Shown: in pieces, positions 25,411 through 29,976 of the stretch
Numbering within the stretch: position 1 is the stretch's first letter
How the letters are laid out: every line of letters begins with the position of its first letter
From: Emydura subglobosa
Taxonomy: Eukaryota > Chordata > Testudines > Chelidae
Direction of reading: 5' to 3'
DNA length: 64,000 nt
NCBI GenBank assembly: GCA_007922225.1
Contig: ML680088.1
Location: 16,776,355 to 16,840,354, forward strand
Program-made: the position numbers and the translations under genes
Notes under the pieces: generated by a model
The model's database searches: none
What the model was told of the DNA's origin: nothing
Seen by the model: the letters and a program-made list of their open reading frames with translations, nothing else

Positions 25411-25709
25411 AGACTTGTACAGGCGTAAATACCTGCCCTTACCTGGTTACTATGCGGCTAGTCCGCCGTCCAATCTAGTATTCAGTAGCTAAAATAATCT
25501 AAAATCAAGATCTAACCTATAAGTAATATTTATTATTCAATTAATTTTAAAATTAAATTAAATTACATGAAAGGACAGTTAAACATAGTCAACAGGTCAA
25601 TAGTATGAAAACTAAAGCCCATTGATAAAATTTAAAATATGGAGAATAAATATATCTATATCTAAAATATATCTAAAATCCACAGGATACACGAAATGAA
25701 TGTTCGGGT
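25411..25709 (-). other. R2 3'UTR
   Basis: About 300 bp lies between the stop codon of the R2 reading frame and the CR1 junction. The first part is strongly AT-rich (runs of TTTAGATATA and AATTTAATTTT). The last 90 bp is more GC-rich (GGACGGCGGACTAGCCGC ... GGTAAGGGCAGG). In R2 the 3'UTR RNA is the part bound by the protein to prime target-site reverse transcription; this is family knowledge, not shown here. There is no poly-A tail at the junction. Confidence 0.6.
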
Positions 25710-28700
25710 TCACTGTTTATCGCTAAAAAGAGCCAACATATCCGTCGTAGCATACATAGCAAGTCTGCACACACTTTCTTTAAAACTTTTAAATTTATCA
25801 ATACCTAAAATTTTAAAAATTTCATCATTTCTTTCACTCCATTTACCTCTCGCCCCAACCACAAATCCAAAGAAGTGGATGATCTTCCCACCAGTGAGCT
25901 GCAGCACCTCCTCCTCCAACTCAGAGTAGCATGCCTCCTTCTCAATGTGGGCTGCCTCCACACTGTCAGCGTTGTCTTCCCATCTAACTGTGACATCCAC
26001 AACGGCTACCACTCCTTCCTTTTCAATAATGAGGTCGGGTTTTCTCAACTTCCCTTCTTTATTATGAAGGTAAGGTTCAATCCAAATTTTACATCCTTTA
26101 TTTCCTACTTTATCAATTAGTGCTTTAACTATCCTATTATGTCTTTTAATTCTTGCTTCTTTCATTTTTATGCACTGACCAGAGATATGAGGAATTGTCT
26201 CTTTGACCTTACCACACCATCTACATAACCCTTCCTCCATCTTCCGTTCTCTTACTAGAGCTTCCCTGGTGGGAAAAACATTCGCTCTCGTTTGCAATGC
26301 CACAATCCGAGAGGAGGACTTGGCCAAGCAAGGATATTTTAAAAACGAATTACTAATACCATCATTTTTAAAATATTTAATACCAATTCCCTGACATCTT
26401 AAATTACTCCATTTTAAAAACTCTTCATCTCTCCACGTTTTAGGATTAGCCGTTTTAGCACTATATATTAAAATTTTCTCCACTAAATTTTCCCCAGCAT
26501 ATAAAAACGAGAAATCTATCCAATCATCTTTGGAGACAATATGTCTCCTCCATTTACGAATTAACATGTTTGGAATTTGGGTACTAAATTTTGTAACTGC
26601 TAAACCCCCATCTCTAGTTCTAGCATAGAATAGCCCATCAGTTGTACACTGGGGAAGATGTAAAATCTTTTTAAGAGTATTCCTAACTAAAACATCTAAT
26701 TCATTTAACATATAAAGTGGCGGCTCGATTAAAAGTAATTCATAAAAAACTCTCGTTAAAATGTAAACTTTTAAAATTATCAATTTCTGCGCAGGTTTTA
26801 ACGGAGCCTTACATAAACTTTCACACCAATCAATTAATTTTTCCTTAGGGGAATTATTAGCCACTCCCACCCATGGATCTATTCTTGCACCTAGATATCT
26901 TTCAGACTCACCAGGTTGAATATAATCAATTAATTCATCACCTAATCCCCATTTATCTTTTGGGTTGATAACATATGTTCCCATGCTTGGGAAAATATGA
27001 AAGCCCTTTGTCTTTTTAACATTTACTTTTAAACTTGAATTTTTACAAAACTGATTAAGAATTTTTAAATTCTTAACCATCCCCTTATAGGACCTACTTA
27101 ATATAGCGATATCGTCGGCAAAGGCCAATGAAGTTATCTTTCTACCCTGCACTATAAAACTATCTCCTTCATCTTCCAATTTATATAAAAGAGGGTCCAT
27201 GGCTATATTAAATAAAATAGGGGAGAGCGGGTCACCTTGCTTAACTCCACTCTTAATTAAAATAGGTTCTGTCTTATCCTCACCAACACTAATTTCAGTG
27301 TAGCAATCTGTATACAAATCCTTTACAATATCAATAAAACTCTCTGATATCCCAAATCTCTTTAACCCCTTTAAAATGTGACCATGGCCAATCGAATCAA
27401 ATGCCTTAGCAAGATCAATAAAAACAACAGCTATTTCGTCTTTATTTTTCTTGGCCCCTTTAATTAACTTTTCTAAAATCGATATATTTTCCTCACAGCC
27501 AGAGGCTGCGATAAAACCTTTTTTTCTGGGGCATAATTTAACAGCACTTGATAATCTTTTAGCTAAAATTTTTGTATACAACCTAATCCAAATCGAACCA
27601 ATAGTCAATGGCCTCCAAGATGATATTTTCTACAACTCTTGTGGATCCTTGACTTTAGGAATTAGGATTGTACGATTGCCTTTAAAACACTCTGGAATCT
27701 GTCTATTTAAAAACCAAATATTAAAAATCCTTACTAAAATCCTACTGTCTAAATTATAAATATCCCATAAATCCTTAACCTTAATTCCATCTGGTCCAGG
27801 AGCACTACTATTATCAATCTCTCTTAAGGCTTCTCTAATTTCATCAATTGATAAAGGCCAATTTAAAATTTCATTATCTCCCACTTCTTTTACTTTTGGC
27901 TATCCTCTGGTATTCCCATGTCCTTCTCTACCCAAAATTTCTTTATAATAGGTTTCAATCTCCTTAACTGCTATCTTACATGTCGCTTTATCAGGTTCTC
28001 CCATAATGATCCTAGCCAACCTTTTCTTATCTTTTTCAAAGTGGGTTTGATAGAATCTAAATTTAGCTTTTCTCCCAGCATATTTTCTATTTCTATTATA
28101 TTTATCAGGAGGCTTACCCACTTTTCTTCCTTGTTTCCCATTATCATTCTGTATATTATTTTCTTTATTATTTTCCAAATTCTCTACATCTTCATGAGGA
28201 GAGTTCATCAACAATTTACATAATTCCTCAAATAATCCCCAACCTTCTGCTACAGTGGCAGAAGCATTTAATTGCTGTTCAATAAAATCCAATTTCTCTA
28301 AAATACGAGCCTCATTACACCTAACTCCTGTTAAAAAACTATCAATTAAAATTTTATCTTTTAAAGGTTTAATTTTCTCACATGGAGGAATATCTTCTAA
28401 AATATCTCCCATCCCACCCTCTTCCCATAAAACCATAGAATCTTCATCCTTTTTAACCTTATTCTTGGCCAGGTCCCTCCTCTTATCTGATATTTGCTTA
28501 TTTGTTTTTGTTTTTAATTCACTTTCTAGACACTTATTAATATTTCTAATCCCTGCATATTTTATTTCAAGCTGAATCAATAATTCAATTTCCTCTTCTG
28601 TCCATACCCGAGTGCGACTTGTTTTCCCAACCACTCTAGCTTCCTTTCTTTCCTCATTCCTCACCGCAGGATGCCTATGTCTGATGTGTTGACTCCGCCC

Positions 28701-29204
28701 CCAGCGAGTGTAGAAGGCAGACCCACAGACCGTGCAGGCATACTTCTTCTCTGAGTTATCCACCTCCTTGGGCCTGCACTTGGGGTAGTGGCAAGCTATG
28801 TTATGGAACTGCGAATATTTACCACATTTTTTGCAAATAACTCTTATTGAAGTGCTTTTATGTACATTATTTATATGCTTCGCCCATTTACTGAAACTAG
28901 CTAAAATTTGTGAATATATAGGGCAATTAAAACAATCTACGGGATATTCTAAATAAAATATTCCCTCTTTAAATGAACTACTCTCTTTAAAACTAGCTGT
29001 ATTCATAAAATTTGTATTAAAATTATCTCCTAAAATATTTCTTCTATTTTCCATAGAATCATGTTGTAAATTATTAAAATTGGTATTATTATTATTAAGA
29101 TTATTAAATTCTATCAAATATGGATCATCAAAAGAATCTAAATATTTGTCATAAAAGCTAGATTTAGAATCGATTATCTTAAGGTCACTATATAAAACAT
29201 TCAT
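25710..29204 (-). pseudogene. R2 protein (zinc fingers, Myb, RT, endonuclease) with two in-frame amber stops
   Basis: One continuous frame of about 1,165 codons is broken only by TAG at 27900-27902 and TAG at 27630-27632. The first part (434 residues) has a C2H2 finger (C91, C94, H110, H115), a CCHC finger (C124, C127, H139, C143), another C2H2 finger (C157, C160, H173, H178) and a Myb-like segment from W201. The middle part has the SAPGPDGI motif. The last part (632 residues) has RT motif A (FIDLAKAFDS), motif B (GVKQGDPLSPILFN) and motif C FADD at 163-166. It then has C462/C465/H474/C479 and the endonuclease PD at 524-525 with D538. Three N-terminal fingers mark the R2-A group. All catalytic residues are present, so the copy is dead only through the stops, and is fairly young. 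Alternative: another R2-clade family with its own target. Confidence 0.9.
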
Positions 29205-29494
29205 AAAGCCATCGGTAAAAGATTAAAATCTAAAACTTGGCTCTCACTAAAATCCTCTTGTTCCTCCCGAACAACACTCTTCTCTCCAACTCGGAGATTA
29301 AAATCATCCATAAAACCAGCTATTCCATCTTTTACTCTATCTATAGTATAAGGAGATAGCATCGGTCCGGCTCTATGAATAATACCCCTAATCAATTTAA
29401 CACTACTAGCCGGGGCGTCGAAACTAGTAGCGGGGGCGTTTTTAACCCGGTCCAGCGCCAATCCGGTATGAAATAAAATTTCTGTTTTCTCCAT
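29201..29494 (-). CDS. Short upstream frame in the R2 leader, overlapping the main frame by ATGA
   Basis: A 97-residue frame starts at ATG 29494 just after the 21-bp repeats. It ends in a TGA that shares bases with the first ATG of the main R2 frame (ATGA at 29204-29201). It contains a short internal duplication (APATS/APASS) and no recognised domain. Either the R2 N-terminus is encoded here and a single-base shift broke it, or it is a separate upstream frame. R2 is normally described with one ORF, so the frameshift reading is the more conservative one. Confidence 0.45.
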   Translation of the reverse strand: MEKTEILFHTGLALDRVKNAPATSFDAPASSVKLIRGIIHRAGPMLSPYTIDRVKDGIAGFMDDFNLRVGEKSVVREEQEDFSESQVLDFNLLPMAL

Positions 29495-29511
29495 AGATTT
29501 AAAAGATACTA

Positions 29512-29616
29512 CCCTTCACAGGGGGAGGCTTACCCTTACCAGGGGGAAACTAACCCGTTACCAGGGGGGACTAATCCGTGCCTGGGGGAGGCTAACCCTT
29601 AACAGGGGGGCAGTTA
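29512..29616 (-). repeat. Five tandem 21-bp repeats in the R2 leader
   Basis: On the + strand the units are CCCTTCACAGGGGGAGGCTT(A), CCCTTACCAGGGGGAAACTA(A), CCCGTTACCAGGGGGGACTA(A), TCCGTGCCTGGGGGAGGCTA(A) and CCCTTAACAGGGGGGCAGTT(A). Each is exactly 21 bp and they are contiguous. The array ends 18 bp upstream of ATG 29494 of the R2 leader frame. On the R2 sense strand each unit has a C5-6 run and a TTAG/TTA step. Confidence 0.9.
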
Positions 29617-29819
29617 GGTGTTGGGGCTGCCCTCCCCACCCCCCCCACACAGCAGGGGGTGTTCGTCCTCCGCGATCAGCCTGGACTCCGCCAGTTACCG
29701 ACTCTCACCACGAGGAGGTTGCGGTTGGACTTGCCAATCAGAGACTTTCCTCAAATGAGGGGTCCCTGCCAGCTTAATGCTGAGCCCTAACGGGAGGGTG
29801 GAAGAGAACTCGGACTCTA

Positions 29820-29917
29820 CGGAGAGATACTTTCAGCATGGCTCTCGCCATCTCTCCGGCACCAATTATTCACCCCACCTCACCCTCAGGTTCTTCGGGA
29901 GGGGACTCAACCCCTCC
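29820..29917 (-). ncRNA. Two strong hairpins near the 5' end of the R2 leader
   Basis: Read on the minus (R2 sense) strand, GGAGGGG at 29917-29911 pairs perfectly with CCCCTCC at 29904-29898 around a 6-nt loop. About 40 nt further on, CGGAGAGAT at 29858-29850 pairs perfectly with ATCTCTCCG at 29828-29820, enclosing an alternative ATGGC-GAGA-GCCAT stem-loop. R2 5' ends are known to carry HDV-like self-cleaving ribozymes. The structure here fits a folded 5' RNA, but I could not trace the HDV double pseudoknot, so the ribozyme identity is open. Confidence 0.5.
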
Positions 29918-29976
29918 GACCGTCCGGGCTCAACAACTGAACAGGGTCCAGAGACACATGAAAAGCCATTAAGAGC

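What the first reader, a model, noticed from the sequence alone, without database searches (positions are those of the whole stretch)
25411..29976. R2 retrotransposon outside ribosomal DNA, inside a CR1
R2 is known for strict insertion into one 28S rRNA site. Here a 4.57 kb element with a full set of R2 domains splits one CR1 between RT motifs B and C. CR1 sequence is found at both edges and no 28S sequence is seen. This is either a rare off-target R2 insertion or a member of a turtle R2 lineage with relaxed or changed specificity. CR1 sequence on the bottom strand at the site (TCTTTAATG) has only weak resemblance to the 28S upstream site, which is suggestive at most.
Basis: partly seen in the sequence, partly recalled or inferred. 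Interest (0 to 1): 0.88.

Follow-up and report, generated by a model that had tools for sequence, protein, structure and literature searches.

The report
Turtle R2 element escaped ribosomal DNA
A jumping gene of the R2 kind, known in vertebrates for living inside one spot of the ribosomal RNA genes, has spread to many other places in a turtle-like genome, where many copies still look undamaged, and an old sister copy sits at the original ribosomal spot.

Summary
The minus-strand element at 25415-29977 is an A-lineage-type R2 (three zinc fingers, Myb, RT, RLE) that splits a CR1. This copy is dead (one frameshift, two TAG stops). It is no stray: the same genome has at least 67 distinct 3' junctions of the family. 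None of 105 flanks matches 28S around the R2 site or U2. CR1 is incidental (5 of 67 junctions, 30 of 739 control pieces). Of 108 scored family RT matches, 46 list open frames of at least 1260 aa; the closest pair differs by 0.14%, so the family is young and probably active. It groups with Chrysemys and Gopherus proteins (100/100), apart from canonical turtle and bird 28S R2. Its 5' end coincides with the predicted cut of an HDV-like ribozyme whose P1 strand resembles 28S just upstream of the R2 site, a likely relic. A decayed sister copy (L088/L090) sits at the canonical 28S site. Best reading: a vertebrate R2 lineage that left rDNA. My literature searches showed no such case for vertebrates or lineage A. 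New variant of a known kind.

The parts
25415..29977 (-). dispersed R2-type non-LTR retrotransposon (this copy damaged)
   Evidence: ends set by comparison with the other genome copies
29971..29977 (-). 5' strand of predicted ribozyme stem P1 (GGCTCTT here; GGCTCTC in 9 of 21 5'-complete copies); first bases of the element; resembles 28S GACTCTC just upstream of the R2 site
   Evidence: 28S recalled, partly printed in PMC3774820 passages
29660..29740 (-). probable HDV-like ribozyme core: P2, P3 and L3 with CCTCCTCGTGG, P1' GAGAGTC, GG of P1.1, P4, P2'
   Evidence: Rfam drz-agam-1 at 29667-29740, 20.6 bits against a gathering score of 37, E 1; core string matched exactly once in 64 kb, 0.09 expected when 2 mismatches are allowed; stems beyond P1 assigned by hand
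29511..29609 (-). 21-bp imperfect tandem repeats in the 5' UTR (read as coding in the Chrysemys protein)
25710..29494 (-). single R2 reading frame from ATG (MEKTEILF) to stop; broken by a frameshift at about 29201-29222 and TAG at 27900-27902 and 27630-27632
28650..28934 (-). three N-terminal zinc fingers (CCHH, CCHC, CCHH)
   Evidence: aligned to R2Tg; the Chrysemys relative aligned to PlaMe and R2Tg
28446..28604 (-). Myb domain
   Evidence: aligned to R2Tg; Pfam Myb_DNA-bind_6 below cut-off, E 0.16
26913..27623 (-). reverse transcriptase domain (RVT_1)
   Evidence: E 2.4e-35
25950..26228 (-). C-terminal zinc knuckle and restriction-like endonuclease (CRWC..HISGQC; RKPDLI..VVDVTVR), limits approximate
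   Evidence: aligned to PlaMe and R2Tg
25415..25709 (-). 3' UTR ending ..GCCTGTACAA
   Evidence: end shared by 67 distinct copies, last base A in 64
25411..25414 (.). 4 extra bases at the 3' junction (AGAC on the + strand), neither clear CR1 nor shared element
24380..25410 (+). left part of the split CR1 (outer limit approximate)
   Evidence: CR1 copy in the L024 flank as empty-site reference
29978..30890 (+). right part of the split CR1 (outer limit approximate)

Best explanation
The window holds one dead copy of a young, high-copy R2 family of the A-lineage type that inserts away from ribosomal DNA. Shown: the family is dispersed, its copies share exact ends, none of the flanks tested is 28S, 5'-truncated copies occur, no target-site duplication is detectable, and many copies keep a full open frame. 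Inferred: copies arise by target-primed reverse transcription. The RLE nicks the bottom strand at a loosely read site (flank motif R-T-W-A-R), the RNA 3' end pairs briefly there, cDNA is made, and the 5' end is joined by microhomology, often with a small deletion. The transcript's 5' end is cut by an element-encoded HDV-like ribozyme. Its P1 strand is probably a carried-along piece of the 28S sequence just upstream of the old R2 site. Carrying its own P1 would let the ribozyme work at any genomic site, which would remove one dependence on 28S. A decayed sister copy at the canonical 28S site indicates that the lineage used that site.
For: Dispersal: 40 scored copies per probe, of 223 and 279 candidates, on many contigs; 67 distinct 3' flanks; 0 of 105 flanks with 28S or U2 at E<0.01, best 0.015. 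Youth: 26 copies over 4 kb, mean pairwise difference 1.6%, least 0.14%, 13 of 26 with a 1260-1261 aa ORF; 46 of 108 RT matches taken as this family list an open frame >=1260 aa. R2 identity. No TSD: longest shared word mean 4.97 against 4.61 shuffled, n=32. Truncation: 15 of 33 stretches with a 3' junction lack the 5' end. Site preference: T at flank position 2 in 53 of 67, background 0.29; four of four same-strand repeat pairs begin within 4 nt of the same register. Ribozyme: 10 of 21 5'-complete copies keep 7 of 7 P1 pairs, and shared sequence stops at that G apart from partial repeats of the 5' end. 28S relic: 10 of the first 11 bases match 28S in fixed register (by hand). 28S history: L088 ends ..GCCTGTACAAATG|TAGCCAAATGCC with 88% 28S downstream; its RT (L090) is sister to the window family (99/93).
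Against: The ribozyme rests on sequence and position only. The Rfam score (20.6, E 1) is below gathering (37), and MFE folding of the 5' region in 7 copies did not recover the HDV fold; that program cannot model pseudoknots. Of 21 5'-complete copies, 11 lack a full P1 in register and 3 lack the GG of P1.1. The 28S relic is only 11-13 bp. The deeper sister groups of the turtle clade are weak (84-89 bootstrap, 62-74 SH-aLRT). The 3' flank alone is not clearly 28S-like (22 of 200 shuffled references score as high); the 5' flank is (0 of 200, n=37) but that is confounded by repeats of the element's own 5' end. L088 may be an insertion into an already dispersed 28S fragment; its 5' flank was not reached, and its RT row fills 45% of the columns. 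Copies inside unassembled rDNA cannot be seen.
Confidence: 0.85

Rival explanations
1. A rare single off-target insertion of the ordinary 28S-specific turtle R2.
For: R2Tg makes rare off-target insertions in human cells (PMC12222951, passages).
Against: 67 distinct dispersed 3' junctions; a different clade from PlaMe R2; only 3 of 111 scored RT matches in this genome are of the canonical type, all three with stops.
Confidence: 0.02
2. The family has a new sequence-specific target (CR1 or another repeat) rather than relaxed specificity.
For: Four same-strand repeat pairs share the insertion register; L046 and L062 hit nearly the same CR1 position.
Against: CR1 in only 5 of 67 flanks against 30 of 739 control pieces; flank information falls to 0.07 bits or less at most positions after the seventh.
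Confidence: 0.08
3. A Utopia (U2 snRNA) or other RLE element mistaken for R2.
For: Reptile Utopia is also RLE-bearing and weakly specific (PMC4640811, parts 1-2 of 5).
Against: No U2 match at E<0.01 in 105 flanks; a Myb region aligns with R2Tg, whereas PMC13188248 files elements without Myb as Utopia (passage); scores to R2-A proteins are far above those to R2Bm. No named Utopia row was in my trees.
Confidence: 0.03
4. The lineage still lives mainly in 28S arrays that the assembly lacks, and the dispersed copies are frequent spill-over.
For: No 28S match spanned the R2 site by more than 4 nt upstream, so intact rDNA seems to be missing or unscored; L088 sits at the 28S site.
Against: Many dispersed copies are full length with intact frames and near-identical, so dispersed copies either propagate or arise at a very high rate.
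Confidence: 0.15

Closest known systems
Canonical vertebrate lineage-A R2 (turtle PlaMe, finch R2Tg)
   Same: three zinc fingers, Myb, RT, RLE, one ORF; RT 45-47% identical to PlaMe
   Different: canonical copies sit in 28S; this family falls in another clade and is dispersed
R2NS-1_SMed and R2NS-1_CSi (non-sequence-specific R2; PMC5035012, passages)
   Same: R2 families not inserted specifically in 28S
   Different: those belong to clades D and C of flatworms; this one is A-type in a turtle-like genome, with a likely 28S relic and a sister copy at the 28S site; their sequences were not compared
Non-site-specific R2-homologous elements of sponges (PMC13188248, passages) and R2-like elements of the German cockroach (PMC7650587, passages)
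   Same: R2-like domains with variable flanks
   Different: described there as neither lineage A nor D (sponges) or as a separate clade next to R2 (cockroach); sequences not compared
Reptile Utopia (PMC4640811, parts 1-2 of 5)
   Same: RLE element in turtles with weakened target specificity
   Different: target U2 snRNA gene; no U2 in the flanks here
R2 ribozymes that use 28S sequence in P1 (PMC3774820, passages)
   Same: HDV-like core; the -13 register is known from Nasonia vitripennis
   Different: here the P1 strand is carried inside the element, as that paper's duplication model would predict

Membership tests
R2 (lineage A) | RT closest to R2-A reverse transcriptases | tested here: met
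   phmmer 528.6 and 499.8 bits to PlaMe and R2Tg against 214.7 to R2Bm; separated from the R2Bm side at 100/99 in the tree rooted there; exact place among A-type vertebrate R2s weakly supported
R2 (lineage A) | three N-terminal zinc fingers plus Myb | tested here: met
   alignment over all four; Pfam Myb below cut-off
R2 (lineage A) | C-terminal zinc knuckle and restriction-like endonuclease | tested here: met
[quoted passage not shown]
   exact core string, 5' ends at the predicted cut and P1 pairing in 10 of 21; Rfam sub-threshold; fold not recovered by MFE; no RNA test
R2 (lineage A) | insertion at the 28S R2 site | tested here: not met
   0 of 105 flanks of the young family; met by the old sister copy L088. 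I therefore call it an R2-clade element that has left the site, not a canonical 28S R2
R2 (lineage A) | biochemical TPRT and nicking activity | not testable with these tools
   needs purified protein
Utopia | U2 snRNA flank | tested here: not met
   no match at E<0.01 in 105 flanks
Utopia | no Myb domain (criterion of PMC13188248) | tested here: not met
   Myb region aligns with R2Tg
R8/R9 | insertion in 18S or another 28S site | tested here: inconclusive
   flanks compared only with a 28S stretch around the R2 site and with U2; 18S and the rest of 28S not tested; flanks differ from locus to locus

The most novel reading that the evidence does not exclude
This is a vertebrate, A-type R2 lineage caught leaving the 28S gene, the first that I know of. 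It carried the 28S P1 strand of its ribozyme with it, its site choice has relaxed to a weak partly 28S-like motif, it still amplifies with many intact copies, and a decayed sister copy marks the ancestral 28S site. Related A-type elements in sharks, coelacanth and salamander may have done the same.
Probability: 0.6. Interest if true: 0.82.

Novelty: new variant of a known kind. Interest (0 to 1): 0.74.

Why it matters
R2 is the textbook strictly site-specific retrotransposon, and A-lineage R2 proteins are being built into gene-insertion tools that rely on that strictness. A natural A-type relative with many apparently intact dispersed copies, together with a sister copy at the old site, makes the question of how R2 specificity is set and lost directly testable by comparing close proteins. 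It also offers a natural test of the published idea that duplicated 28S sequence can move the ribozyme cut into the element.

Tried and rejected
Rejected: CR1 as target; assembly chimera as explanation of the family; lone off-target event; Utopia. Folding of the 5' ~340 nt of 7 copies gave other structures; that program does not model pseudoknots. A 5'-flank base profile (36 flanks) gave no clear counterpart of the -20 T that PMC12222951 reports for R2Tg off-targets. 28S likeness of the 3' flank alone was not significant. One search failed by a script error; one search used a shifted register and is replaced. No structure prediction was run. Rows dropped: L017 (same flanks as L016) from junction counts; L031 from the 5'-flank sets, L018 from those, L022 from that; the first tree used 52 of 168 retrieved proteins, chosen by hand, plus 4 others; P0141, P0022, P0029 and the two outgroups were left out of the second tree.
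Full report
What is there. The window (contig C158 of a 1.93-Gb genome) carries on its minus strand an R2-type non-LTR retrotransposon at 25415-29977, set into a CR1. The CR1 is split between the RT stretch with SGVP.GS and the one with FADD (read). Comparison with a CR1 copy next to another family member (L024) shows a join of CATCTT to CATTAAAGATC with at most a base lost and four extra bases at the 3' junction. This copy cannot be active: a frameshift near 29201-29222 and TAG at 27900-27902 and 27630-27632.

Identity. Against solved structures the RT-to-endonuclease part scores 528.6 bits to the turtle 28S R2 protein, 499.8 to finch R2Tg and 214.7 to silkmoth R2Bm. 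The N-terminal part aligns over three zinc fingers and Myb with R2Tg; Pfam finds RVT_1 above cut-off and Myb below it. The nearest protein found in a 5.8-billion-sequence collection (7993 candidates scored) is a 1291-aa product labelled Chrysemys picta bellii, 60% identical over the whole query, on a 156.6-Mb contig and named by its source as PDE3B isoform X1. A second search (7997 candidates scored) found a 386-aa Gopherus evgoodei protein, 66% identical over 38% of the query.

Tree. In an RT tree of 56 rows (52 of 168 retrieved proteins, chosen by hand, plus the window and three solved R2 proteins) the window, Chrysemys, Gopherus and a short fragment from a 'Gallicola' metagenome bin form one clade (100/100). 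Sharks with one environmental row are the next neighbours (89/69), then coelacanth (88/74), both weak. Canonical turtle and finch 28S R2 fall with ray-finned fish rows in another clade (94/96). A second tree of 52 rows agrees on the turtle clade (100/100), the weak join with sharks (84/62) and the canonical group (95/88), but leaves the coelacanth unresolved. No named Utopia, R2NS, R8 or R9 sequence was in the trees.

Copy number and age. Probing the own genome with the 5' 977 bp gave 40 scored of 223 candidates, and with the 3' 350 bp 40 scored of 279. I fetched the 39 other hits and 35 further 3' ends. These, with the window, gave 67 distinct 3' flanks. Of 26 copies over 4 kb (L017 dropped), mean pairwise difference over the last 3500 nt is 1.6%, the least 0.14%, and 13 carry an ORF of 1260-1261 aa; the window copy does not. 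A search with the canonical turtle R2 RT scored 111 of 17376 candidates: 3 of canonical type at 66-71%, all with stops, and 108 at 45-47%, which I take as this family by that level of identity. Of the 108, 46 list an open frame of at least 1260 aa; one of those 46 (on C655) also lists a stop inside the match, and one pair (C36, C620) is probably one locus. Copy numbers are lower bounds.

Where it inserts. None of 67 3' flanks and 38 5' flanks matches a 28S stretch around the R2 site or U2 at E<0.01; the best value is 0.015, over 11-18 bp. CR1 occurs in 5 of 67 3' flanks and in 30 of 739 nearby control pieces, so the CR1 setting looks incidental. There is no detectable target-site duplication: the longest shared word averages 4.97 against 4.61 in shuffled pairs, n=32, with 2 pairs reaching 8 against 0.5 expected. 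Of 33 fetched stretches with a 3' junction (window and L017 counted), 15 lack the 5' end; the 5' probe cannot have seen strongly truncated copies. Counting from the end ..ACAA, the 3' flank shows a short motif: A or G (62 of 67), then T in 53 of 67, then A/T-rich and purine-rich positions, fading within about seven bases. TAG and TAAG are enriched in its first 12 bases (22 against 8.5, and 14 against 1.7). Similarity to 28S downstream sequence as a whole is not significant (22 of 200 shuffled references as high), and it becomes unusual (1 of 200) only when ten upstream bases are added. The 5' flank resembles 28S upstream sequence (0 of 200, n=37), but repeats of the element's own 5' end confound this. 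The four same-strand pairs of flanks that share a repeat all begin within four bases of the same register, so choice is not random.

5' end. In 21 5'-complete copies (L017 dropped) shared sequence stops at or just inside GGCTCTCTTAATGGC, apart from partial repeats of that end in several copies, the window among them. About 265 nt in lies ACCTCCTCGTGGTGAGAGTCGG; CCTCCTCGTGG is the string that PMC5035012 calls the most conserved of the R2 ribozyme (passage). The longer pattern occurs once in the window, where 0.09 is expected at two mismatches. The seven bases after P3, GAGAGTC (20 of 21 copies), pair with the first seven bases of the element; 10 of 21 copies keep all seven pairs (9 GGCTCTC, 1 GACTCTC), and 11 do not, having lost or changed bases at the 5' end; the GG of P1.1 is kept in 18 of 21. 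GAGAGTC is also a perfect complement of 28S GACTCTC, which begins 13 nt above the R2 site. The element's first 11 bases match 28S there at 10, in fixed register (by hand; roughly 1 in 100,000 by chance at equal base use). PMC3774820 (passages) reports ribozymes that borrow P1 from 28S, including a cut at -13, and models how a duplicated 28S stretch could move the cut into the element. The present 5' end fits that model. Rfam gave only a sub-threshold hit and plain folding did not show the fold, so activity is unproven.

The 28S link. A 202-nt 28S query found 14 matches in the genome, none reaching more than four bases upstream of the R2 site. Five matches begin exactly at the base after the site and two begin four bases earlier (L088, and a 41-nt match on C7 that I did not fetch). 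Upstream of three of the five (L083-L085) lies canonical PlaMe-like R2 (57-65% aa); L086 and L087 resemble each other and were not identified. Upstream in L088 is the end of a relative of this family: 70% nucleotide identity over about 1 kb, ending GCCTGTACAAATG and then TAGCCAAATGCC, with 28S continuing at 88%. Its RT (L090, with stops) is 69.5% identical to the window and 68% to Chrysemys and is sister to the window family (99/93, on a row filling 45% of the columns). So a close relative once sat at the canonical site, or at that site in a dispersed 28S fragment. Its 5' flank was not reached.

Reading. The lineage most likely descends from a 28S-inserting R2, took the P1 strand of its ribozyme on board, and now inserts widely with weak site preference. 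The dispersal, youth and clade are shown; target-primed reverse transcription, ribozyme cutting and the order of events are inferred from anatomy and from what is established for R2. The single Chrysemys protein also lies on a chromosome-sized contig, so the timing of the escape relative to L088 is open. What changed in the protein is open too: PMC12180492 (passages) assigns base-specific contacts in A-clade proteins to ZnF2, and the second finger here keeps its CCHC frame but is one residue shorter than in PlaMe and R2Tg, which is a lead only.

Novelty. PMC5035012 reports two clearly non-specific R2 families, in planarian and liver fluke, and says R2 of jawed vertebrates fall in two lineages (passages). 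PMC13188248 reports non-site-specific R2-like elements in sponges, outside lineages A and D (passages). Searches of the held library (listings, plus the passages named) showed no vertebrate or lineage-A case. Repbase and subscription papers were not searched, so a database-only or unseen report cannot be excluded.

Noticed in passing
L013, L029, L037, L038: Internally deleted derivatives keep the 5' 770-1330 nt and the 3' 60-605 nt, like the internally deleted non-autonomous R2 elements of PMC3414825 (search listing only).
   Followed up: partly
L018 with L074, L022 with L079: 5' and 3' parts of what looks like one insertion face each other, as in 5' inversion by twin priming; not checked further.
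   Followed up: no
L014: The element is flanked by inverted copies of the same ~30-bp repeat stretch (TAAAGTGCCACAGAACTCTCG).
   Followed up: no
L016 and L017 (contigs C620 and C36): Same flanks on two contigs, probably haplotigs or a duplication; counted once in the junction counts.
   Followed up: yes
L083, L084, L085, L086, L087: 28S fragments dispersed on large contigs begin exactly at the R2 site, three with canonical-type R2 upstream; either dispersed rDNA pieces or R2 copies that carried 28S along.
   Followed up: partly
P0141 (Gallicola metagenome bin), P0076 (Aeromonas bin): R2-type RT fragments in bacterial genome bins, probably animal DNA contamination.
   Followed up: no
P0059, P0067, P0074, P0075 (catshark, bamboo shark), P0057, P0058 (coelacanth), P0014, P0018 (Pleurodeles): A-type R2 relatives, at least two per genome, the shark and Pleurodeles ones on contigs of 255 kb or more; may also lie outside rDNA.
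   Followed up: no
window 31008-32160: Sequence that looks to me like a BED-finger/hAT-type gene or pseudogene next to the CR1; impression from reading only.
   Followed up: no
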